A program made the position numbers and the translations under genes. From positions 186,001-250,000 of the forward strand of contig NZ_CP021914.1 of the NCBI RefSeq assembly GCF_002814095.1: 64,000 nt of DNA. The letters run 5' to 3'. How positions within the stretch are numbered: position 1 is the stretch's first letter; each line of letters starts with the position of its first letter. This document shows, one piece after another, positions 2,472 to 64,000 of this stretch. The stretch is from Sagittula sp. P11. GTDB lineage: Bacteria > Pseudomonadota > Alphaproteobacteria > Rhodobacterales > Rhodobacteraceae. The notes under the pieces are model-generated. The model was not told the origin of the DNA. It ran no database searches and saw only the letters and a program-made list of their open reading frames with translations.

Positions 2472-5400
2472 TCACTCCAGCGACGTCGGGCAGCTGAAGT
2501 CCCGAAGCTCGCGCATCAGGAACGGCACGGTCGAGCTGTCGAACTCGATCCGGTAGGTGATCGATTGCCCGCGGATTGTGTAGCGCACGGTGACCACGTT
2601 GCCCTGCACCTTCGGTGCGCCGTCCGCCAGCCACTTGGCGATGTCCCAGCGGCCCTGGCTGAATTCGAAGGTCGCCTGATTGCCTATCCGGGTCGGGATC
2701 AGCTCGATCGACACGCCCGCCGTTTCTCCCGGCCATGAGAAGCCCGCAGGCGTCGAATCCGGCTGGGTCGGGATGGTCTTGCCGTGGATGTTGAGGTTGG
2801 CCAGCCCCACGCCCGGCGAAGAGGTCACATGCTTGATCGACATGTTGACCTCCGGCGTCGGAGAGCCGGATGCGAAGAACGCGCGCTGGATCTTCTGCGC
2901 CCGGTCGAACTGCGCCAGTGCGCTGCCGGACAGGCGCTGGCCGACGGCGGTGCCGGGATCCGCGCGCAACCCGTCAGAGGTGCGGATCACGTAGGGAGCC
3001 AGGTGCTGCGAATAGAACTGGTCCATCTTGCCGCCCGGTCCGAAGAACTGGCCGAAGATCGACGGCGAAAGGTGCCGCGACGACCCGCCCGAGAACGGGT
3101 AGAACGGCGCGATCTCCGTCTTGCAGAACTGCGCCACCTCGTCGTTCAGGGCACGGGTCAGCTCCGCCAAGGTGGCGTTCTCGGCGGCGGTGCGGAATTC
3201 CGTCGCCACCGCACTGTTCATCCGCGCGATCACGTCCGGCGCACCGGCGTTCGTGCGGGTCAGCGCGGTCAGCGCCTGCCCCAGCATCTGGTCGTCGGCG
3301 GGCGTCGGCGCAAAGGCCGCGTTCGAGCGGTTCTCCTGCACGCTGGCATAGGCCTGCAGCATGAAGTCGATGGGCCGGTTCGGGCGCTCGCCCTTGATCA
3401 GGGTGTGCCAGTCCTTGAAGTCGTCGGTGATGCGCTGCACCCGGCGCCGGTCGACGTCCTCGGCCAGCCCGCCGGAACTGGCGCGGAGCTGGTTCTTCGT
3501 CCGGTTGCCGAGGCTTTCGAGGATCACCCGCGTGAAGACGCCCGACCGCGAATAGATCCGGTCATAGGCCGCACTCCCCAGCGCGCCGCCCAGTTCCGCG
3601 TTCCCTCCCGAAGCGATCAAGCGCGCCGCGTCGGTCTCGGAAATCCCGCCGATCTCGTCGTAAAGACGCATCAGGTTGGTTTCCTCGGTCACGCCCTCGG
3701 CCAGTTCGGCGATGGGCGAGTTCGTGGGCGAGGCGGCATAGCTCAGCAGCGTGTAATTCGGGCTGTCCGCGCTCATCTTGGCGATGGTCAGCTTCTCGAA
3801 CATCACGTTCCACGCCACCGTGAATTCGCGGCGGTACTTGGAGAAAAGCTCGTTCTCGAGGTTGGCAAGCTGGGTGTTGAAGTTCACCCGGTCGCCGGTC
3901 TCCCCCAGCACCCACTGCTCGTCTTCCAGCCGTTCCTTGGCCGAAACCATCTCGTCGACGAAGAAGCCCCAGTACCCTTCGAAGGTGTAGAGCCCCGGCA
4001 CGGAAAGCTGGTCCAGAGGCGAGCCGTCCGTGGTCCGGAACACCTCGTTCACGTTGCCCGACACCCGGTTCACGAGGTTGAAGTCCGGCACGCCCGACAG
4101 GCTCGATGCCTCCTTGATCGCCGCATAGGCCTGATCGGCCAGCGGCAGGTTCACGATGCTCTCGCGCGCCCGGCCCTTGATGTTGTCGTCGGGCTTCACC
4201 ATCACTTCCTGGTCGGTGTCCAGTTCGAGCATGGCGTCGAGATGCTGCATCAGCTTCGTCCGCTCGTCGAAGCGCGTGGCCCCGGGCATCATGATCTGCC
4301 ATTCGGTGTCGAAATAGTTGCGGATCGCCTCGTCGCCGTCGCCCTTCGCCTCCAGATCGCGGCCAAGCTGCATGTAGACCTTCAGCGCGCGATATGTGCC
4401 TTCGGTGTCGCCGTCGATGATCAGCTGCGGGATCTCGTTTTCGAGGTGCAGCATCATGCGCGGCCGCAGCATCCGTTCCAAACCGTCGGAATAGGCCTTC
4501 CTGGCGGAGTTCGCGATCTCGCGCGACCGGTTCAGGCCGAAGCCTTCCCAGAATGTCGGGTTGTGCGGATTGCCGTAGCCCGCGGGCATGTTCCTCAGCG
4601 CGTCGAGATGGTCGATGACGCCGGTCGGATCGGGGTCCTGGATCAGCGAGTTGTCCAGCTCGTTGCGCGCGGAATCGAGGTAGACCGCCGCGTGCGCCTC
4701 TGCATCGCGGACCAGCGTCGCGTTCTGCCAGAAGCTGTAGCCGAAGGCCGCCATGGCCGCCGTCGTCGCAAGCCCGATCACGCTGAACGCCAGCGTCCTC
4801 AGGATCGCCACGCGCCGCACGGCGCGGCGGTCGAAGTTCACCCAGTCGCGTTCCTCGAATATGACCTTCGCCAGCACGTCGTGCAGGAAGTAGCTCTTGC
4901 CCTTGCCGGACATGAAGGCGGGCTGGAACCCCTCCCCTTCCCCGTCGCGCGACATCGCACCCAGCACCTGGTCGATGGGCGTGCCTTCCTGGGTGCCGGA
5001 GGTGAAGTAGAAGCCACGCAAGATCGCGTTGGTGTCGTAGCGGGTCGGCTCGAACACCTTGCGCAGGAACTCCACCACGTTCTCGCGCAGCATCGCCATC
5101 TGGCCGGGCAGGCCGAAGATCTGAATGCGCGAGGTGTCGTCGGGCTCCTCCACCATGCGGTCCACGACCTCGTCCGAGAGCCGCGACAGCAGCGCGTCAA
5201 ATTCCTCGCCCACCTGCGCATGGGTCGCCTCGCGGCGGTCCTTGGTCTGGAAGGTCGTGCCCCACGCCATCTTGCGCCGGGCCTGGCTGAAGGAACTGAA
5301 GTACTCGCGGAAACCGGCAATCAGGTCGGCCTTGGTGAAAAGCACGTACACCGGGAAGTCGATGCGCAGCGCCTGATGGATCTCGCCCAGCCGTTCGCGC

Positions 5401-6116
5401 ACCACCGCGGCGTGCTGGGTCAGAGACTCCGGCGTGCCCTTCAGCATGTCCTCGACGGAAAAGGCGAGGATCACGCCATTGATCGGCTGATCCGGGCGGC
5501 CTTTCTTCAGCAGTTCGAGGAACGCGCTCCACGAGGCCTTGTCGGCATTCGCGTCGCTCTCCTGCATGACGTAGCGCCCGGCGGTGTCGATCAGGACCGC
5601 CTGCTCGGCGAACCACCAATCGACGTTCTTCGTCCCGCCGAACCCCTGCGCGCCCTCGGTCAGCGCGTCCTGGCCGGGGAAGTCGATCCCGGAATAGCGC
5701 AGCGCCGTCGTCTTGCCCGCGCCCGGCGGGCCGATGATGACGTACCACGGCAGCTCGTAGAGGTAGTTCTTGCCACCGGTCTTCTTGAGCTTCTCCAACG
5801 CCTCGCTGAACCGTTCGTTCAGCACCTCGCCGTCGCCCACCGGTGCCTCGACGAGGCTGTCCTCCAGCGCCTTCGCCTTGCGGCGCCGGCGGATGAACTT
5901 GAACAGGTACCAGCCGAGGATCGGCGACAGGATCAGCACGATCACCGCGACCCGTACCCAGATCCGGGAGAAGAACTCCGACCCGGTCATCGGCAGGCCG
6001 AAGAAAATCGCAAGGAAGACGCAGATCACGCCGACGACGATCCAGAAGCGCAGGAACGCGCGGCTGGTCAGGATTCTCCAGATGACGTGGAAGAACCGGA
6101 AGAACAGGTGTTCCAT
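2472..6116 (-). CDS. tssM: TssM (IcmF) inner-membrane T6SS core protein
   Basis: A 1,214-residue TssM, within the usual 1,100-1,300 range. It forms the membrane complex with TssL and TssJ and spans to the periplasm. Two transmembrane helices lie near residues 22-41 and 54-75, then a cytoplasmic NTPase-like domain with Walker A GPPGAGKTT (129-137) and a Walker-B-like AVLIDTAGRY near 175. A third helix (about 435-460, VIGLATTAAMAAFGYSFW) precedes the large periplasmic region, which ends in the Ig-like C-terminal domain (GETAGVSIELIP, then FEFSQGRWDIAKWL). It lies five bases before tssL's stop region and five bases from tagF, so the genes are co-transcribed. Confidence 0.95.
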   Translation of the reverse strand: MEHLFFRFFHVIWRILTSRAFLRFWIVVGVICVFLAIFFGLPMTGSEFFSRIWVRVAVIVLILSPILGWYLFKFIRRRRKAKALEDSLVEAPVGDGEVLNERFSEALEKLKKTGGKNYLYELPWYVIIGPPGAGKTTALRYSGIDFPGQDALTEGAQGFGGTKNVDWWFAEQAVLIDTAGRYVMQESDANADKASWSAFLELLKKGRPDQPINGVILAFSVEDMLKGTPESLTQHAAVVRERLGEIHQALRIDFPVYVLFTKADLIAGFREYFSSFSQARRKMAWGTTFQTKDRREATHAQVGEEFDALLSRLSDEVVDRMVEEPDDTSRIQIFGLPGQMAMLRENVVEFLRKVFEPTRYDTNAILRGFYFTSGTQEGTPIDQVLGAMSRDGEGEGFQPAFMSGKGKSYFLHDVLAKVIFEERDWVNFDRRAVRRVAILRTLAFSVIGLATTAAMAAFGYSFWQNATLVRDAEAHAAVYLDSARNELDNSLIQDPDPTGVIDHLDALRNMPAGYGNPHNPTFWEGFGLNRSREIANSARKAYSDGLERMLRPRMMLHLENEIPQLIIDGDTEGTYRALKVYMQLGRDLEAKGDGDEAIRNYFDTEWQIMMPGATRFDERTKLMQHLDAMLELDTDQEVMVKPDDNIKGRARESIVNLPLADQAYAAIKEASSLSGVPDFNLVNRVSGNVNEVFRTTDGSPLDQLSVPGLYTFEGYWGFFVDEMVSAKERLEDEQWVLGETGDRVNFNTQLANLENELFSKYRREFTVAWNVMFEKLTIAKMSADSPNYTLLSYAASPTNSPIAELAEGVTEETNLMRLYDEIGGISETDAARLIASGGNAELGGALGSAAYDRIYSRSGVFTRVILESLGNRTKNQLRASSGGLAEDVDRRRVQRITDDFKDWHTLIKGERPNRPIDFMLQAYASVQENRSNAAFAPTPADDQMLGQALTALTRTNAGAPDVIARMNSAVATEFRTAAENATLAELTRALNDEVAQFCKTEIAPFYPFSGGSSRHLSPSIFGQFFGPGGKMDQFYSQHLAPYVIRTSDGLRADPGTAVGQRLSGSALAQFDRAQKIQRAFFASGSPTPEVNMSIKHVTSSPGVGLANLNIHGKTIPTQPDSTPAGFSWPGETAGVSIELIPTRIGNQATFEFSQGRWDIAKWLADGAPKVQGNVVTVRYTIRGQSITYRIEFDSSTVPFLMRELRDFSCPTSLE

Positions 6117-6120
6117 GGCC

Positions 6121-7937
6121 TTACTCCTCCACTTCGCGGCGGATCATGATTTCCACCCGCCGGTTGCGGGCGCGGCCTTCGGCGGTGGCATTGTCGGCGA
6201 TCGGATCGACCGGCCCCTTGCCCTCGACGCTCACGCGTTCCTTGTCGCTGAGGCTGGCGGTCACGAGGTCCGACACGGTCTGCGCCCGCGCCTGGCTCAG
6301 TTCCTCGTTGGTCTTGAACCGCCCGCGTCCGGACAGCGGCACGCTGTCGGAATGCCCGACGATGCGGATCGGACCCGGCTGTTCGTTCAGCACGACGCCG
6401 ATGGCCGTGGCCAGCGCGGTCAGGTCGTTCTCAAGCTCTGCACGGCCCGAAGCGAAGCGCAGCGCCGAGCCGAGGCGGATCAGGATCCACTCGTTCTTGA
6501 CGTCGACCTCGACCTCCTGCCCTTCCAGCGCCGCGCGGATATCGTCGAGACGGTCGACCACCACGGGCGGCGGCTCCGGCGTGCGCTCCACCGGGGCGGA
6601 GCGTTCGATGGTCACGTCCGGCAGGTTGAAGTGCATCATCGCGATGCCGTTCTGGGTGCGGCCCGCCTGCTGCGACAGCAGGTAGGCGAGCGTCGCGAAC
6701 AGCGCCACGACCATGGCGCCGCCCACGGCGGCAGCGACCCAGACCGGGATACCGCCCCGGCGCCGCTTGCCGTTCACGATCACCGGCGTCCAGCGGACAG
6801 AGATGTCGTCGTCCGGCCGTTTCACCACCTTGCGCAGCGTCTCGTAGATCGCCTTGCGGATGCGGGCCAGTTCGTTCGGCCCGTTCGGCATCGCCCGGTA
6901 CTGGCCTTCGAAACCCAGCGACAAGCAGACGAGGAACAGGTCCAGTAGGTGGAACTTCTGCCCCGGCGCCTTCATCGCGCGGTCCATGCGCTGGAAGAAG
7001 CCCACACCGGCGTTCCGCTCTCCGAAGAACCGCGCGCCCATGGAGTATTCCAGCCACATGCCCCGGTCCGCGCCGGGCAGGTTCTGCACGATGTCGTCGG
7101 CGGTGGCCGCCAGCGCGTATTTCGCGTCGGTCACGTCATCCGCCGGCACTCCGGCCTCCAGCGCGTTCGACTCGAAGGCGTCGATCTCGCGTGCGACGTG
7201 TTCCAGGAGCGGCGCGGACTGCATCTCAACCATGCCGGTGCGCAGGCGGCCCAGCAGGATCAGCAGGTTCGCGGCGGCGGCGACCAGCGGATTGTTCGGC
7301 CCGCCCGCGCCAAGCCCGGTGGCACGCAGCGCGTCCTCCAGTGCGATCTTCTGCCGGACAGAGCGGGCGACCGTCTCGCGCCGTCGCAGTTCAGGGAACA
7401 GCTCGGGGCTTTGCGGGCGGCCGGTGTCAGTGTCGTAGATCCGGCCGGAATAATGGTTGCTGCCCGGGTTGCCCATCGGGCGCGGCTGTGGCTGGTAGGC
7501 CGGTTGCTGCGGCGCCGGGCGCGGGGCGGCCTGCGGCGCCTGCGGGATCGGTGTAGGCCGCGGCGCCTGCGGTTGCGGCGGCGGGGGCGGCGCGGGCTGA
7601 TGGTACTGCTGCTGCGGCGGGGGAGGATTATGGGACACCTTACCCCCAGCCAGGTGTCCTCTCCGCCCGCGCCACCGCCGACCCAGGTCTGGTGCGGCGG
7701 CTGCTGGATCGGACTTTGCGGGAAGGCCGATGGCGGGCGCTGCCCCTGCGGCGCCACGCGCGGCGGCTGGTTCTGCGGGCTGATCGGCGTGCCGAAGACG
7801 GTGCGGTCCGGATCGCTCGGGTTCACGTTCTGCGACGGCGGCGCGGGCCTCTGGCCACCACCCTGCGACGGGCGCGGCGGCTGCGGGATCGCCTGTCCGA
7901 AGACGGTCTTTTCGTTGTCGTCGTCGTCGCTTGCCAT
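6121..7937 (-). CDS. tssL: TssL (DotU) with C-terminal OmpA/MotB domain; reading frame broken by an apparent 1-base deletion
   Basis: T6SS inner-membrane protein. The intact downstream frame (6121-7638, 505 residues from a GTG) has a Pro/Gln-rich start, the DotU domain (about 75-290), one transmembrane helix (about 298-322) and an OmpA-type peptidoglycan-binding domain (about 385-500: IRIVGHSDSVPLSGRG, NRRVEIMI). A further frame starts at 7937 with ATG overlapping the tssK stop as TGATG. It encodes MASDDDDNEKTVFGQ, then DPDRTVFGTP, then EDTWLG, typical of TssL N-termini in this group. The frames meet at a run of five C (five G on the coding strand) at 7643-7647. One extra G would give EDTWLGGKVSHNPPPP and one protein of about 605 residues. 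A sequencing error, a mutation or a real two-start arrangement are all possible. Confidence 0.88.
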
Positions 7938-57495: not shown

Positions 57496-58482
57496 TCAGA
57501 GACCGTTGATCGCGTCCAGCATGCCCTCGGGCCAGGACTTCGACAGTGGAGAGTTCAGGTACTGCTCCTGCGCGTGGGACTGGAACGCCGCGACATCGGG
57601 CGTGTACACCTTGAGCCCCTCACCTTCGAAGAACTCGATCAGCTCGGCTTCCTGGTTCAGGTATTGTTCGTCCGACCACGCGACGGCCTTTTTCGCCGCC
57701 GCGCGCATCCGCTCCTGCTGTTCGGGAGTCAGGGCGTCGAAGACTTGCGACGAGACGAGGATAAGGCCGATCCCGACATTGTGGCCGGTCAGCACGATCT
57801 GGTCGGTGACCTCGTAGAATTTCATCTCCTTGTCGTTGGGCAACGGATTGTCCTGACCGTCGACCACGCCGGACTGCAGCGCGGTGTAGAGCTCGGCATA
57901 GGGAACCGGAACCGGGTTCGCCCCCAGCGACTTGCCGAGGAATTGCCAGCTTTCGCCGCCGGGCATCCGCAGTTTCACGCCGGACATGTCGGCGGGGGTG
58001 TTGATCTCCTTGTCGCCGCGCAGGTTGACCTGGCGGGTGCCGTAGTAGAGTGGGGTCAGGATCTCGACGCCCAGCTTATCGCGGGCGATCTGGCGCAGCT
58101 GTTCGCCGACCTCCGAGTCGAAGACCGCCTTGAGGTGCGCCTGGTCGCGGATCACATAGGCTGCGCCAAGGATGTCGAACTCTGGCGCCTGCTGGGCGAG
58201 GTCGGAGGGCGGCAGGCTGGCCATCTGAATGTTGCCGCGCTGGATGCCCGTCAACTCAGTGCCCTGCTTCATCAGGGTCGCGCCATAGTATGGCTTGAAG
58301 TCGAACTCTTCGCCGATCTCCTTGGCGAAGATATCGACGAGGGCCACGTTGCGCGGCGCCTGCTGCGGGTTCACGTCGGAAAAGATCAGCTCGATCTTGT
58401 CCTGAGCCTGCGCGGCCCCCGTGAGCATCGCCACCGCAAGCGCGGCTGACGCGAAAGTCCTGAGTCTATTGTGGATCATCAT
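57496..58482 (-). CDS. dctP: TRAP transporter periplasmic binding protein DctP, system 3
   Basis: A 328-residue DctP protein. The signal peptide (LRTFASAALAVAMLTGAAQA) precedes QDKIELIFSDVNPQQAPRN. Family landmarks are MSGVKLRMPGGESWQFLGK, with the conserved Arg, and VPVPYAELYTALQSGVVDGQDNP, cited as the standard ligand loop. The C-terminus EFFEGEGLKVYTPDVAAF closely matches the miniature protein at 61264-61542. Two in-frame ATGs occur at 58482 and 58479; GGGAGG favours either. It lies 18 bases after the SMP-30 gene. Confidence 0.92.
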   Translation of the reverse strand: MMIHNRLRTFASAALAVAMLTGAAQAQDKIELIFSDVNPQQAPRNVALVDIFAKEIGEEFDFKPYYGATLMKQGTELTGIQRGNIQMASLPPSDLAQQAPEFDILGAAYVIRDQAHLKAVFDSEVGEQLRQIARDKLGVEILTPLYYGTRQVNLRGDKEINTPADMSGVKLRMPGGESWQFLGKSLGANPVPVPYAELYTALQSGVVDGQDNPLPNDKEMKFYEVTDQIVLTGHNVGIGLILVSSQVFDALTPEQQERMRAAAKKAVAWSDEQYLNQEAELIEFFEGEGLKVYTPDVAAFQSHAQEQYLNSPLSKSWPEGMLDAINGL

Positions 58483-58500: not shown

Positions 58501-59394
58501 TCAAAGTGCAAAGCGGTTCTCCGGCACCCCCTGCCCCGCGCCTTCTATTGCGAAGACGCTGCCGGCCAGCGGCTCGACGTCCAGTTGATCGGGCGACAGG
58601 AACTTGAAGGCCGAGGTGACGTAGAGAGTGCGGAATTCGGGCCCGCCGAAACACAGGCAGGTCGGGTTGGTTACAGGCAGCGCGATTTCGCGGTCGATCC
58701 TTCCGTCAGGGGCGTAGCGTACGACCCGGCCACCGGCAAAGAAGGCCTGCCAGAGGCAGCCATCGGCATCGACGCAGGCACCGTCCGGCCGGTCGCCGGA
58801 GGCGGAATAGTCGGCGAAGACTTCGCGCCCGACGATGGTCTCCCCTGCCTCGTCAAGTGCGAAGCGCCAAGTGATGTAGCGGCGGGTGTCGGTGAAGTAC
58901 ATGTGCCGTCCGTCCGGATCGAAGGCGATACCGTTCGACACGATCACGTCGTCCAGCATCTGCGTGGCGGTGCCGTCCGGATCGACCCGGTAGAGTGCGC
59001 CCAGCCCCTGGCTCAGACCATTGTCCATCGTACCGATCCACAGGCGTCCGCGGGTATCGACCCGGCCATCGTTCAGCCGTGTGGCGGGCATCTGCTCGCC
59101 GGGGATGGTGGCGAAGGATCTGGCCGCACCGCTTTGCGGGTCGATCAGCACCAGGTCGAGGTCACGCGCGGCGAGCAGACCGTCGGACCCTGTCAGTGCG
59201 AGCGAGCCGAAGTAGATGCCGGGCTGTTCCAGCGCCACCGCTTCGCCGGTGGCGGGGTCCAGCCGCCAGAGCGTCGGCTGCTCGATGTCGATCCACCACA
59301 GGCAGTTGCGACGCGCGTCCCAGAGCGGGGTCTCTCCCAGTTGGGCGGCGACTTTCTGGACGCATTCGACCTTTGGTTGTGTCATGCGCTTCAT
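58501..59394 (-). CDS. SMP-30/gluconolactonase-like protein
   Basis: A 297-residue six-bladed beta-propeller of the SMP-30/regucalcin family, which includes sugar lactonases. Likely metal ligands are Glu in LGETPLWD, Asn in ATRLNDGRVD, Asn in VSNGIAFDPD and Asp in GDRPDGACVD, the expected E-N-N-D set. The start ATG at 59394 (MKRMTQP) overlaps the dctM stop as ATGA; MTQP at 59385 is an alternative. With the cyclase-family enzyme and TRAP system 3 this points to uptake and ring-opening of a lactone, which is inference. Confidence 0.88.
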   Translation of the reverse strand: MKRMTQPKVECVQKVAAQLGETPLWDARRNCLWWIDIEQPTLWRLDPATGEAVALEQPGIYFGSLALTGSDGLLAARDLDLVLIDPQSGAARSFATIPGEQMPATRLNDGRVDTRGRLWIGTMDNGLSQGLGALYRVDPDGTATQMLDDVIVSNGIAFDPDGRHMYFTDTRRYITWRFALDEAGETIVGREVFADYSASGDRPDGACVDADGCLWQAFFAGGRVVRYAPDGRIDREIALPVTNPTCLCFGGPEFRTLYVTSAFKFLSPDQLDVEPLAGSVFAIEGAGQGVPENRFAL

Positions 59395-60686
59395 CCCTTG
59401 TAGCCCAGCATCCGGGGCAACCAGAGCACGAAGTCGGGCACGAATGTGATGATCATCAGGGCCACGACCAGGGCGAAAAGGAAGGGCACCAGGTCCCGGA
59501 CGATGCGTGCCAGTGGCTGTTTGGTGATCGTGGACACGATGAACAGCAGCAGTCCGTAGGGCGGCGTGATCAGCCCCAGCATGGCGTTGACCACGCAAAT
59601 GACACCGAAGTGCACGAGGTCGATCCCAAGCGACTGGGCCGTCGGGATGAAAATCGGAACGATGATCAGCAGGATCGCCCCGGACTCCAGGATGCAGCCC
59701 AGAACGAGGAACAGCGCGTTGATGGCCAGCAGGAACCCGACGCGGGACAGCTCGTACTGGCCGAGGAAGGCTGCGAGCGAGTCCGGCACGTTCTCGCGGG
59801 TGACGACGTACTGGAAGGTCAGCGCCCCCGCGATGAGGATGCCGACGGTCGCCGTCGAACGGGCCGAAGCCAGCAGCGTCTCGTAGAACTGCCCCAGTCT
59901 GACCGAGCGATAGACCACGACCGAGATCGTGAGCGCGTAAAAGGCAGCCACGGCGGCGGCCTCTGTCGGGGTCATCACGCCGCCGTAGATGCCGCCCAAA
60001 AGGATGACCGGCAAAAGCAGAGCGGGAATGGCGCGGAAGGTGACACCGGGCATGTCGCGCAGCGAAACCACCTCGTCTACGGAGAAGTTGCGGCGATGGG
60101 CGATGACGGCGTTCATCACCATCAGCACCACCCCCATCAGGAGACCCGGCGCCATGCCGGCGGCAAAGAGGTAGCCGACAGACTGGTCGGAGACGAGCGC
60201 GTAGAGCACCATGGGGATCGACGGGGGGATGATCGGCCCGATCGTGGCCGAGGCGGCGGTGATCGCAGCGGCGTAGGACGCGGTGTACTTGCCGTCCTTC
60301 GTCATCATGTTGATGATGATCTTGCCCATGCCGACCGCATCCGCGACGGCAGAGCCCGACATACCTGAGAAGATCAGCGAGGACACCACGTTGACGTGTC
60401 CCAGGCCGCCCTTGAACCGCCCGACGAGCGCCTGCGAAAACTGCAGCAGCCGGTCCGCCAGAGAGCCGATGTTCATTATGTCGGCCGCGAGGATGAACAG
60501 CGGGATCGCCAGCAGCGTGTAGCTGTTGAACAGCCCCTGCAGGAGCGTCTCTGAGGCGATGGAGGGGTCGAACCCTTTCATGATCAGGTAGACGGAGGAC
60601 CCGCAGATCATGGACAGGCCCATCGACAGGCCGCCGAACGCCAGGAAGGCGATCAGCAGGATCGAGACGAGAAACGGATCAGTCAT
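59391..60686 (-). CDS. dctM: TRAP transporter large membrane subunit DctM, system 3
   Basis: A 431-residue DctM permease. Landmarks are LLAIPLFILAADIMNIGSLAD, SSLIFSGMSGSAVADAVGMG, SATIGPIIPPSIPMVLYALV and GLITPPYGLLLFIVSTITKQP. It overlaps dctQ by eight bases on the left and the SMP-30 gene by ATGA on the right. Confidence 0.94.
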   Translation of the reverse strand: MTDPFLVSILLIAFLAFGGLSMGLSMICGSSVYLIMKGFDPSIASETLLQGLFNSYTLLAIPLFILAADIMNIGSLADRLLQFSQALVGRFKGGLGHVNVVSSLIFSGMSGSAVADAVGMGKIIINMMTKDGKYTASYAAAITAASATIGPIIPPSIPMVLYALVSDQSVGYLFAAGMAPGLLMGVVLMVMNAVIAHRRNFSVDEVVSLRDMPGVTFRAIPALLLPVILLGGIYGGVMTPTEAAAVAAFYALTISVVVYRSVRLGQFYETLLASARSTATVGILIAGALTFQYVVTRENVPDSLAAFLGQYELSRVGFLLAINALFLVLGCILESGAILLIIVPIFIPTAQSLGIDLVHFGVICVVNAMLGLITPPYGLLLFIVSTITKQPLARIVRDLVPFLFALVVALMIITFVPDFVLWLPRMLGYKG

Positions 60687-61200
60687 ACTCGTGGGTTCCG
60701 GCCGATTGGGTTGTGTCGAACGCCGGCCCGGAACCGGAAATGCCGCGCCAGATGCTGATGAAGCAGCGCAGGATCACGGAGAGCGCGAAGGGCATGTAGA
60801 TCGCGAAGACCCAGTCGAAGGGAATCTTCATGTAGGCGGTCTTCTCGATCGCCATGAAGGTGACGTAGTCCCACACGTAAGGCAGCGTCCAGATGAAGAT
60901 GCCCGCGCAGATGGCCCCCGTCACGACATCCATCGCCCGCCGTCCGCCGCGCGGCAAAAGGTTGTAGAGAATGTCCAGCCGGATCACCTCGGATTCGCGC
61001 ACGACAAAGGCGTATCCGAACAGGATGCCCCACAGCCACGCGATCGACACGAACTCCACCGTCCAGCCAAGCGGGAGGTTCAGCAGGTAGCGGAACACGA
61101 TCTGGATCAGGAAGCTGACGAAGAGTGCGCCGAGGATCAGCGCGAGAAAGTTCTCGGCTCGCGCACCGAGCCATCCGATTGGTTTTCGCAGACGGTCCAT
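60679..61200 (-). CDS. dctQ: TRAP transporter small membrane subunit DctQ, system 3
   Basis: A 173-residue four-helix DctQ protein: FLALILGALFVSFLIQIVFRY, WTVEFVSIAWLWGILFGYAF, a short amphipathic SEVIRLDILYNLLP, and AIYMPFALSVILRCFISIWRG. ATG at 61200 reads MDRLRKPIGWL. It overlaps dctM by eight bases and follows the mini-DctP gene by 63 bases, which contain a small CGGCCG-AAA-CGGCCG hairpin. Confidence 0.9.
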   Translation of the reverse strand: MDRLRKPIGWLGARAENFLALILGALFVSFLIQIVFRYLLNLPLGWTVEFVSIAWLWGILFGYAFVVRESEVIRLDILYNLLPRGGRRAMDVVTGAICAGIFIWTLPYVWDYVTFMAIEKTAYMKIPFDWVFAIYMPFALSVILRCFISIWRGISGSGPAFDTTQSAGTHEYD

Positions 61201-61263: not shown

Positions 61264-61542
61264 TCAGAGGCCGTTGATCTTTTCGAGCCGCCTCTCGGGC
61301 AAGTCCGCGGAATACTTGGAGTTCCTGAACGCCTCGAGCACGTGGTTGCGGAAGGCCTCCCTTTCGGGTTCGTAGACCTTCAGCCCCTGTTCCTTGAAGA
61401 AGGTCACCAGTTCCGCCTTCTGGGCGATGGTGTCGACATCCAGCGCAGCCTGGAACTCGCGCACGTCCTGCGCCACCGCGGTGCCGGCGCCGATTCCGGC
61501 AGCCATCAAGGCTGCCAGCCCTGCCACCTTGAAGTTCCTCAT
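61264..61542 (-). CDS. Miniature DctP-like exported protein (signal peptide plus DctP C-terminal segment)
   Basis: A 92-residue frame with GGAGGAG upstream of its ATG. Residues 1-25 (MRNFKVAGLAALMAAGIGAG, then TAVAQ) form a Sec signal. Residues 40-92 align without gaps to the last 53 residues of DctP system 3 with 26 identities (about 49%), including AEL-FF, GLKVY-P, AF, H and the final INGL. The whole ligand-binding body of about 240 residues is missing. Either this is an in-frame deletion relic of a second dctP or a small stand-alone periplasmic protein derived from one. Its start signals look intact and it lies in the operon before dctQ. Confidence 0.75.
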   Translation of the reverse strand: MRNFKVAGLAALMAAGIGAGTAVAQDVREFQAALDVDTIAQKAELVTFFKEQGLKVYEPEREAFRNHVLEAFRNSKYSADLPERRLEKINGL

Positions 61543-61588
61543 GATCCTACGCTCCTCCCAGTTGCGCTTCGTGGACGTCAGGACGCCC

Positions 61589-61960
61589 CTAACCGAACGA
61601 ACCGAATGCCTCCCGCATCCGGTCGGTGTCGGGCTTCTCTCTCTTGAAATGTTCTTGGACCCGCGCGGGCTCGCAAAGCGCCATACCGAAGACGGGCGGG
61701 ACGGTGCGCTTGTACCGACGAGGCACGTCCAGCCATTCAAAGCCCTCTGCCCCGAGACTGTCCGAGGCACTCGCCGGAACGTTGCTCTCGTCCGCATCGA
61801 CCGGGACGTGGCCAAGCCGCAACCCGACCGCTGCCGTGATCGCGCGCGGTGACCGAAACGGGCCGATCCCGCGGCTCATGCGGGCGATTGAACGCCCGCG
61901 ACCGACAACCGGGCCGGTCTGCAAGGGAGCGGCAAACGTCACGAAACTCCTCCTGTCCAT
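61589..61960 (-). CDS. Hypothetical protein, first gene of the TRAP system 3 operon
   Basis: A 123-residue frame (MDRRSFVTFAAPLQTGPVVG at the start). No family was recognised. The C-terminal half (DVPRRYKRTVPPVFGMALCE, HFKREKPDTDRMREAF) has protein-like composition with charged residues, while the first 40 residues are Arg/Gly/Ser-rich. No ribosome site precedes the ATG, so it may be spurious or start later. It lies 46 bases before the mini-DctP gene on the same strand and divergent from the TetR-hydrolase gene. Confidence 0.35.
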   Translation of the reverse strand: MDRRSFVTFAAPLQTGPVVGRGRSIARMSRGIGPFRSPRAITAAVGLRLGHVPVDADESNVPASASDSLGAEGFEWLDVPRRYKRTVPPVFGMALCEPARVQEHFKREKPDTDRMREAFGSFG

Positions 61961-61978
61961 GGCGGGTTCTCTGACCGC

Positions 61979-62008
61979 TTGACGTGAGAATGTTCGTGAC
62001 GGTTAAAT
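61979..62008 (+). promoter_or_regulatory. Possible sigma-70-type promoter for the TetR-hydrolase gene
   Basis: TTGACG at 61979-61984 and TTAAAT at 62003-62008 are 18 bases apart in an unusually AT-rich patch, about 125 bases before the ATG at 62134. Confidence 0.45.
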
Positions 62009-62133
62009 ATGTCAACCTTTTGTACCAGATCGTTAAAAGTGGGTGCGGCGATGCGAGATCCACGGGCATTTCCGCGCGCCTTGCCTTGCGGTACACGGGG
62101 GCGTTGGCCAAGGATCGAAGGAGAGACGGCACC

Positions 62134-63780
62134 ATGGGGGATGCACCTTCCCACCCGCGCCCGGGCGAAACGCAACGCGGTGGCTGGAAACAGGATCCCG
62201 ATGCCGTGCGCCGCAACATCCTGCAGGTCGCGCGCACCGTCTTTGCCCGGCAGGGCCTGTCGGGCGCGCGGGTCGATGAGATCTCGGCCAGCACGAAGAC
62301 GTCGAAGCGGATGATTTACTACTACTTCGGCGACAAGGAGGGGCTCTACCGCGCCGTACTCGAGGACGCCTATGCGCGGATGCGCGACGACGAGGCCGCC
62401 CTGGACCTGCGCGCCGTGCATCCCATGACGGCCCTGCGTCAGCTGGCGGAGTTCACCTTCGAGCACCACCGGCAGGACCCGGACTTCGTGCGACTGGTGA
62501 TGATCGAGAACATCCACGGCGCCGCGCATATGGACTCGTCCGAGATCCTGGCCGGGCAGAACAGTTCGGCGATCCTGCTGCTCGAGGACATCTACCAACG
62601 CGGCTGCGACGCCGGCCTGTTCCGGCGCGGGCTGACGGCGCTCGAGCTGCACTGGCACATCTCGGCTCTGTCCATCTTCAACATCGCCAACCGCGCGACC
62701 TTTTCGCGGATCTTCGGCAATGACCTCTTTACCGAGCGTGGCCAGCGCATGCTGTGCCGCCATGTCGGCGACATGATCCTGGGGCTCGTGATGAAGCCCG
62801 GACTTTCCGCCGAGTTCGACATGCCAAGACCCAAGGAGGAGGCACGCACGATCAACCCGGGTATTTTCCGATTTCTCGACGTATGGGACAGCAAATGGGC
62901 CACGCTCGCACCGGGGGCGACCCCCGCCGAGCGGCGTACGCACTTCGAAAGCATCGCGCGCGACATGCGCCTGCCGACACCCCGCGAGGTCGAGACCGAT
63001 GACGAACACTGGATTGACAGCGACGGCGGTCCGGTGCGGGTGCGGGTCTTTCGTCATGACAGCGGAGGCACGCAGCCTGCACTGATCTACATGCACGGCG
63101 GGGCATGGATGCAAGGCAGCCCGGAAACCCATTGGGACATCACCGCGCGGCTTGCAGCGTGGAACCGGCAGACCGTGATCTCGGTCGACTACGCCCTGGC
63201 GCCGGAGCATCCCTTTCCGGCGGCCTACCTTCAGGTGCTGTCCGTGGCGCGATGGGCCCATGCGGAAGCGAACTCCCTGGGGATCGACCCTGCGCGCATC
63301 GCCATCGGAGGCGACAGCGCGGGCGGCAACCTTGCCGCTGCCGCGGCGCTGGCCTGCCGTGACGAAGGCGTCCCGATCTGCGCCCAGCTTCTGATCTATC
63401 CGGCCTGCGACTTCGACCAGTCCCGCCCCTCTTACGCCGAGAATGCCGAGGGGCCCCTCCTGAAGGTCGCGGGCATGGCGGCGACCCACGCGCTCTACTG
63501 TCCGGACGAGGCAACCTTGCACGGCGATCCGCGCGCAGCGCCTCTGGCGGCCGATAGTCATGCGGGCCTGCCTCCTGCCTTCATCGCTGTGGCACAGAAC
63601 GACCCTCTGCGCGACAGCGGGCTGGCCTATGCCGAGGCGCTGACGGCTGCAGGCGTCGATGTCGAGGTCGACCGCGGAGAGGGGCTGATCCACGGCTATC
63701 TTCGTGCCATGGAATACTGCCCTGACACAGAAACCAGCCTCCGCCGGATGGCTGGCTGGCTGCGCCGGATCACGGGATAA
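62134..63780 (+). CDS. TetR-family regulator fused to an alpha/beta-hydrolase (HSL/esterase type)
   Basis: A single uninterrupted 548-residue protein. Residues about 24-72 are a TetR helix-turn-helix (RRNILQVARTVFARQGLSG, then TSKRMIYYYFGDKEGLYRAV), followed to about 225 by a TetR-type ligand domain with DFVRLVMIENIHGAAHM. A linker of about 80 residues leads to a complete alpha/beta-hydrolase fold-3 domain: oxyanion motif HGGAW at 321-325, nucleophile Ser395 in IGGDSAGGN, Asp490 in VAQNDPLRDS and His520 in GLIHGYL. All catalytic positions are intact. ATG at 62134 follows AAGGAG by ten bases. It diverges from TRAP system 3 and its lactonase-like enzymes. A regulator that hydrolyses its own effector is one reading; an enzyme autoregulated by substrate is another. 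Confidence 0.9.
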   Translation: MGDAPSHPRPGETQRGGWKQDPDAVRRNILQVARTVFARQGLSGARVDEISASTKTSKRMIYYYFGDKEGLYRAVLEDAYARMRDDEAALDLRAVHPMTALRQLAEFTFEHHRQDPDFVRLVMIENIHGAAHMDSSEILAGQNSSAILLLEDIYQRGCDAGLFRRGLTALELHWHISALSIFNIANRATFSRIFGNDLFTERGQRMLCRHVGDMILGLVMKPGLSAEFDMPRPKEEARTINPGIFRFLDVWDSKWATLAPGATPAERRTHFESIARDMRLPTPREVETDDEHWIDSDGGPVRVRVFRHDSGGTQPALIYMHGGAWMQGSPETHWDITARLAAWNRQTVISVDYALAPEHPFPAAYLQVLSVARWAHAEANSLGIDPARIAIGGDSAGGNLAAAAALACRDEGVPICAQLLIYPACDFDQSRPSYAENAEGPLLKVAGMAATHALYCPDEATLHGDPRAAPLAADSHAGLPPAFIAVAQNDPLRDSGLAYAEALTAAGVDVEVDRGEGLIHGYLRAMEYCPDTETSLRRMAGWLRRITG

Positions 63781-63938: not shown

Positions 63939-64000
63939 ATGCTAAATCTCAATCGTCGGCTCGTCTGTGGTTTCGCCGCTGCGGCCATGGCCCTTTTCCC
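63939..64000 (+). CDS. N-terminus of an exported protein, cut by the window edge
   Basis: From ATG at 63939, with GGGAGG seven bases upstream, the frame reads MLNLNRRLVCGFAAAAMALF, a Sec signal peptide start. Given the window's pattern it may be a further transporter binding protein, but nothing of the mature part is visible. Confidence 0.7.
   Translation, partial: MLNLNRRLVCGFAAAAMALF

What the first reader, a model, noticed from the sequence alone, without database searches (positions are those of the whole stretch)
61264..61542. Mini-DctP: signal peptide joined to the last 53 residues of a TRAP binding protein
A 92-residue exported frame aligns gaplessly with the DctP system 3 C-terminus (26 of 53 identical) but lacks the ligand-binding lobes. 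It keeps a good ribosome site and lies at the head of the same operon. DctP C-terminal helices pack against the lobes and approach the membrane subunits, so a free copy could modulate docking or be a clean deletion relic.
Basis: seen in the sequence. Interest (0 to 1): 0.65.

Follow-up and report, generated by a model that had tools for sequence, protein, structure and literature searches.

The report
Leftover of a deleted TRAP binding-protein gene
The short exported reading frame is what remains of a full-length transporter binding-protein gene after an internal deletion, and its surviving end now drifts without visible selection, so it looks like an ordinary gene relic and not a new mini-protein.

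Summary
That DctP is not its parent. In 6 of 6 syntenic relatives examined, one of the same genus, a full-length binding protein ("SBP1", 327-329 aa) stands in this place, and the tail is closest to it: 41 of 65 residues against 28 of 65 for the window's own binding proteins. So the frame is SBP1 minus about 237 internal codons, in frame. Sagittula sp. MA-2 shares the deletion. Since the two strains parted, 15 of 65 tail residues have come to differ; the same stretch of the intact DctP differs at 3 bases and no residue. Changes fall in both lineages, some at positions invariant in the relatives, such as WPEG to LPER. The ORF just upstream looks like an internally deleted aroE. Of 68 other matches in 394 family genomes, 65 lie in frames of 330 codons or more and 3 abut contig ends. 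Verdict: relic of a shared deletion in a partly decayed operon; a weak hint of faster-than-neutral change remains.

The parts
61264..61542 (-). SBP1 relic: 92-codon in-frame remnant of a DctP-type binding-protein gene (head with putative signal peptide, then the last ~65 codons)
61264..61460 (-). tail of the relic (codons 28-92), homologous to the last 65 codons of SBP1; codons 42-92 hold all 17 differences from MA-2
61461..61542 (-). head of the relic (codons 1-27, putative signal peptide); the deletion junction is near codon 27/28 (VAQDV|REF)
61589..61960 (-). probable aroE (shikimate dehydrogenase) relic: 123-codon ORF, weakly matching head plus clearer tail, internal deletion of about 150-165 codons in frame
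60679..61200 (-). dctQ, intact small TRAP permease subunit
59391..60686 (-). dctM, intact large TRAP permease subunit
57496..58482 (-). intact dctP at the far end of the operon
62134..63780 (+). divergent TetR-alpha/beta hydrolase fusion gene, the synteny marker

Best explanation
The frame is the relic of a full-length DctP-type binding-protein gene (SBP1) that stood between aroE and dctQ in the ancestral operon. An in-frame deletion of about 237 codons joined its putative signal peptide to its last ~65 codons before the window strain and Sagittula sp. MA-2 separated. The product lacks both lobes that bind the ligand and contact DctQM, and the tail has since drifted. The membrane subunits are probably served by the intact DctP at the operon's end and perhaps by the intact binding protein starting at 63939. 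Shown: the full-length gene at this place in relatives, the shared junction, the loss of constraint on codons 42-92. Inferred: that the product is inert, and which binding proteins serve DctQM. The downstream genes stay under selection, and because the deletion is in frame it need not have silenced them.
For: Synteny: TetR-hydrolase / aroE / SBP1 / dctQ / dctM with full-length SBP1 in 6 of 6 relatives examined (G001 same genus, G195, G070, G095, G045, La6 plasmid CP031587), SMP30 and end-dctP also found in 5 of 6. Tail identity to those SBP1 56.9-66.2%, to the second tandem SBP of three of them 44.6-50.8%, to the window's own two binding proteins 28 of 65 each; in a 19-row tail tree the two relics fall in the SBP1/SBP2 half, branch support 100/100. 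A survey by dctQ, independent of the relic: 28 of 30 loci read have a full-length binding protein directly upstream of dctQ, 1 has none there (L062), 1 is cut by the contig end (L074). Window vs MA-2: relic Nd 15.5, Sd 1.5 (dN/dS 3.25) against dN/dS 0.14 (dctQ), 0.036 (dctM), 0.046 (end dctP); Fisher p 3.5e-6 against the end dctP. By majority of six relatives 9 of 17 changes are derived in the window and 8 in MA-2; of 29 positions invariant in six SBP1 the window breaks 5 and MA-2 3. Neighbouring ORF is a similar relic.
Against: The frame is still open and has a good ribosome site in both strains; but 17 random changes would leave it open with probability 0.49-0.66, and the head lies in a stretch of 1,694 bases with 2 differences, so constraint on codons 1-41 cannot be tested. 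Only two strains carry it. MA-2 breaks 3 invariant positions, no more than the most divergent full-length SBP1 (3 of 32 for G045; others 0-2). The tail differs at 17 of 156 bases, above the 56 of 861 at fourfold sites (two-sided p 0.034) and is the densest 156-base stretch of the 16-kb comparison, a hint of faster than neutral change, though two noncoding stretches reach 8.2 and 9.0%.
Confidence: 0.87

Rival explanations
1. A functional mini-DctP: the exported C-terminal piece binds DctQM or the intact binding proteins and modulates docking.
For: Open frame, ribosome site and putative signal peptide kept in two strains. Papers (passages seen) describe contacts of QM with both lobes of the binding protein (PMC9352664).
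Against: No purifying selection on the tail: 15 of 65 residues differ while the same stretch of the intact DctP differs at 0 of 65. W81 and G84, invariant in six SBP1, are lost in the window; a proline is gained at residues 52 and 86 in MA-2. No other mini form among 68 further matches, within the limits.
Confidence: 0.04
2. A small secreted peptide with a new role that changes fast under diversifying selection.
For: 15 to 16 of 17 changes alter the protein; the tail is the densest stretch of change in 16 kb.
Against: The excess is not firm: P of 15 or more of 17 nonsynonymous under neutrality is 0.09-0.22, of 16 or more 0.02-0.07, depending on the transition bias; the stretch was picked after the fact.
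Confidence: 0.05
3. Relics kept open for the operon's sake: selection tolerates only in-frame deletions upstream of dctQM because untranslated leader RNA would invite Rho-dependent termination. The peptides themselves do nothing.
For: Two adjacent relics (aroE, SBP1) are each internally deleted in frame and still open, and the genes downstream stay constrained.
Against: Two in-frame deletions have a chance of about 1 in 9; staying open has a chance near one half. The operon's transcript is not known. This would add to the relic reading, not replace it.
Confidence: 0.12

Closest known systems
SBP1, first DctP-type binding protein of the syntenic operon (L019 4755-5744 in G001; QEW23264.1 'Neu5Ac-binding protein' on CP031587.1)
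   Same: Place between aroE and dctQ, tail sequence (63% over the last 65 residues for G001), putative signal peptide at the head.
   Different: About 237 internal codons, both lobes, are missing; conserved tail positions are broken.
WP_283983845.1, hypothetical protein of Sagittula sp. MA-2 plasmid p3 (NZ_CP126148.1)
   Same: Same relic: same length, place and junction, 83.7% identical.
   Different: 15 of the last 51 residues differ; different conserved positions broken.
PDB 4pf6, C4-dicarboxylate-binding protein
   Same: Its residues 274-328 match relic residues 38-92, E 1.1e-10.
   Different: A whole two-lobed binding protein, which also matches SBP1 of G001 over 303 residues.

Membership tests
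DctP-type TRAP binding protein (PF03480) | Match to the family profile | tested here: not met
   No Pfam match at E up to 1; the NCBIfam scan gave only a chance hit at E 0.12. A short tail can miss the profile, so this shows a lack of the domain body, not a lack of homology.
DctP-type TRAP binding protein (PF03480) | Two lobes around a ligand site | tested here: not met
   About 237 codons between head and tail are absent relative to G001 SBP1.
DctP-type TRAP binding protein (PF03480) | Descent from a DctP gene | tested here: met
   Tail 57-66% identical to SBP1 of six syntenic relatives, tree, place.
Gene relic (pseudogene by internal deletion) | Intact gene at the same place in relatives | tested here: met
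   6 of 6 syntenic relatives examined.
Gene relic (pseudogene by internal deletion) | Loss of purifying selection | tested here: met
   Nd 15.5 / Sd 1.5 between two strains, all in codons 42-92; codons 1-41 not testable because that stretch is nearly identical by recent exchange.
Gene relic (pseudogene by internal deletion) | No functional product | not testable with these tools
   No expression or proteomic data at hand.
Conserved small protein of TRAP operons | Occurrence next to TRAP operons beyond one lineage | tested here: not met
   Found in the window genome and MA-2 only; other family matches lie in frames of at least 330 codons (65 of 68) or abut a contig end (3 of 68) (about one genome per genus, E <= 1e-8).

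The most novel reading that the evidence does not exclude
After the deletion the exported remnant took on a role of its own as a fast-changing secreted peptide, which would explain an almost wholly amino-acid-changing burst of substitutions in the tail while the frame and ribosome site stayed whole in both strains.
Probability: 0.05. Interest if true: 0.55.

Novelty: new member of a known kind. Interest (0 to 1): 0.12.

Why it matters
Little beyond annotation: it shows that a clean, exported, well-initiated small ORF beside a transporter can be a deletion relic, and how one syntenic comparison plus one close strain settles it. It also shows this multi-receptor TRAP operon losing one of its binding proteins. 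If the novel reading held, it would be a small secreted peptide born from a binding protein.

Tried and rejected
Derivation from the window's own DctP or from the binding protein starting at 63939: rejected, 28 of 65 tail residues each against 41 of 65 for SBP1 of G001, and the tree puts them in the other half.

Hybrid of two tandem binding proteins (three relatives have SBP1 and SBP2 in tandem): not favoured, since the tail is nearer SBP1 (57-66%) than SBP2 (45-51%), and the place next to aroE fits SBP1. The origin of the head alone (27 codons of signal peptide) is not settled by sequence.

The 203-codon stop-to-stop frame around the relic: the 111 codons before the ATG overlap the aroE relic in another frame; taken as a chance open frame.

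The orphan binding protein as a control of the tail: it is identical in both strains in that stretch, but the stretch lies inside a 603-base identical run (64530-65132), so it says nothing and was dropped as evidence; the end dctP (3 base, 0 residue differences) is the control used.

Relatives in viral contigs: none. Genome contigs: 8 loci, matching from residue 35 or later, all in frames of at least 333 codons. Papers: no paper held the four terms truncated / TRAP transporter / DctP / pseudogene, none held five of six terms on small remnants; the listings gave no work on this point by title.

Full report
Observation. The 92-codon minus-strand ORF at 61264-61542 exists, with a GGAGG ribosome site and a head that looks like a signal peptide by eye.

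Parent gene. A search of 4 genus genomes and 394 family genomes, nearly one per genus, and of plasmids with the ORF gave its best matches, apart from MA-2, at tails of full-length binding proteins. I took the six best (G001 of the same genus, G195, G070, G095, G045 and the La6 plasmid CP031587, which appears to be the same contig as G242:C3) and compared synteny. All six have the TetR-hydrolase fusion gene, a full-length binding protein (SBP1, 327-329 aa) and dctQ-dctM in the window's order; five of six also have SMP30 and the end dctP within the stretch read. Three have a second tandem binding protein (SBP2). So the ORF occupies the place of SBP1. The alignment shows head ...AVAQDV joined to the equivalent of (C)AREFQ..., removing about 237 codons relative to G001, in frame. 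Tail identity is 57-66% to SBP1 against 45-51% to SBP2 and 43% (28 of 65) to the window's own two binding proteins. A tree of 19 tails puts the relics with SBP1/SBP2, branch support 100/100, without resolving them further.

Independent survey. Because the six were found through the relic's own tail, I also searched with DctQ. Thirty loci other than the window's were read (one listed match, G045:C23, had no locus and was not read): 28 have a full-length binding protein directly upstream of dctQ, one (L062, G218) has none there, one (L074) is cut by the contig end. In G218 the operon is itself in ruins: DctM pieces 1-84 and 256-354 in different frames, DctP 129-326 only, hydrolase fragments. None of the 30 shows a mini form.

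Shared by a second strain. Sagittula sp. MA-2 plasmid p3 carries the same relic, annotated as a hypothetical protein, with the same junction and 83.7% identity. The two strains are 97.4% identical over 16 kb. A stretch of 1,694 bases, 61420-63113, holds only 2 differences, which I read as recent exchange; it includes codons 1-41 of the relic and the aroE relic, so no constraint can be read there.

Selection. In codons 42-92 there are 17 base differences and 15 residue differences. The same stretch of the end dctP has 3 base and 0 residue differences when its last 65 codons are taken. The orphan binding protein's tail is identical but lies in another identical run, so it is no control. Over whole genes dN/dS is 0.14, 0.036, 0.046 and 0.081 for dctQ, dctM, end dctP and the hydrolase, against 3.25 for the relic (15.5 against 1.5 changes). 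SMP30 is looser than these, 96.0% identical in protein. Relic against end dctP: Fisher p 3.5e-6. By majority of six SBP1, 9 of 17 changes are derived in the window and 8 in MA-2, two of the 17 on tied outgroup columns; of 29 invariant positions the window breaks 5, including W81 and G84, and MA-2 3, while each full-length SBP1, left out in turn, breaks 0-3 of 29-32. That both strains decay separately speaks for drift. Against a plain neutral reading: the tail's 10.9% exceeds the 6.5% at fourfold sites (56 of 861; p 0.034, chosen after the fact), and 15-16 of 17 changes are nonsynonymous (P 0.02-0.22 by count and transition bias); two noncoding stretches reach 8.2% and 9.0%, two others 4.4% and 4.8%. 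I read this as neutral with a weak unexplained surplus.

The neighbour. The 123-codon ORF at 61589-61960 (MA-2: WP_157815096.1) matches AroE: tail 22 of 48 identical (E 9e-9 in a six-sequence comparison) and a weaker head (25 of 73, E 7e-4), both in its frame (by tblastn 4e-9 and 4e-4). All six relatives have a full-length aroE there. So it is probably a second internally deleted gene, with the exact junction unsettled. Pfam and NCBIfam do not recognise either relic (one chance NCBIfam hit).

Mechanism. Passages of two papers (not read whole) state that TRAP transporters accept substrate only from the binding protein (PMC10942642) and that QM contacts both its lobes (PMC9352664). The relic keeps neither lobe whole, so docking in the known way is unlikely (inference). 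With one more binding protein at the operon's end and one beyond the hydrolase gene, SBP1 may have been dispensable (inference).

Breadth. Of 69 listed matches in 394 family genomes one is the relic; 65 of the other 68 lie in open frames of at least 330 codons and 3 short ones abut contig ends (two seen in loci L034 and L042, G136 by its position). Limits: E <= 1e-8, stop-to-stop frame length is not gene length, and about one genome per genus. In plasmids 1 of 35 matching records covers at least 80% of the ORF (MA-2).

Verdict. An ordinary gene relic by in-frame deletion, shared by two strains.

Noticed in passing
window 61589-61960 (-): ORF annotated as hypothetical in MA-2 (WP_157815096.1) is probably an internally deleted aroE; six of six syntenic relatives have a full-length aroE there.
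   Followed up: yes
L091 (G218:C6:1000-14000), 4570-7105: The same operon in ruins in another genus: dctM head and tail in different frames, dctP and TetR-hydrolase as fragments, no SBP1 or aroE match.
   Followed up: partly
window 61420-63113: 1,694 bases with 2 differences from MA-2 within a 2.6% background; several other identical runs (64530-65132, 59659-60131) suggest patchy recent exchange between the plasmids.
   Followed up: partly
L019 6886-8486 (G001): The TetR-hydrolase gene matches in three reading frames, so it is frameshifted or misread in G001.
   Followed up: no
window 62134-63780 (+): One gene fuses a TetR regulator (TetR_N, TetR_C_29) to an alpha/beta hydrolase (Abhydrolase_3) and is kept beside this operon in other genera.
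   Followed up: no
window from 63939 (+): Intact DctP-type binding protein without dctQM genes beside it in the corresponding MA-2 stretch, on the other side of the hydrolase gene; it might share the operon's DctQM.
   Followed up: no
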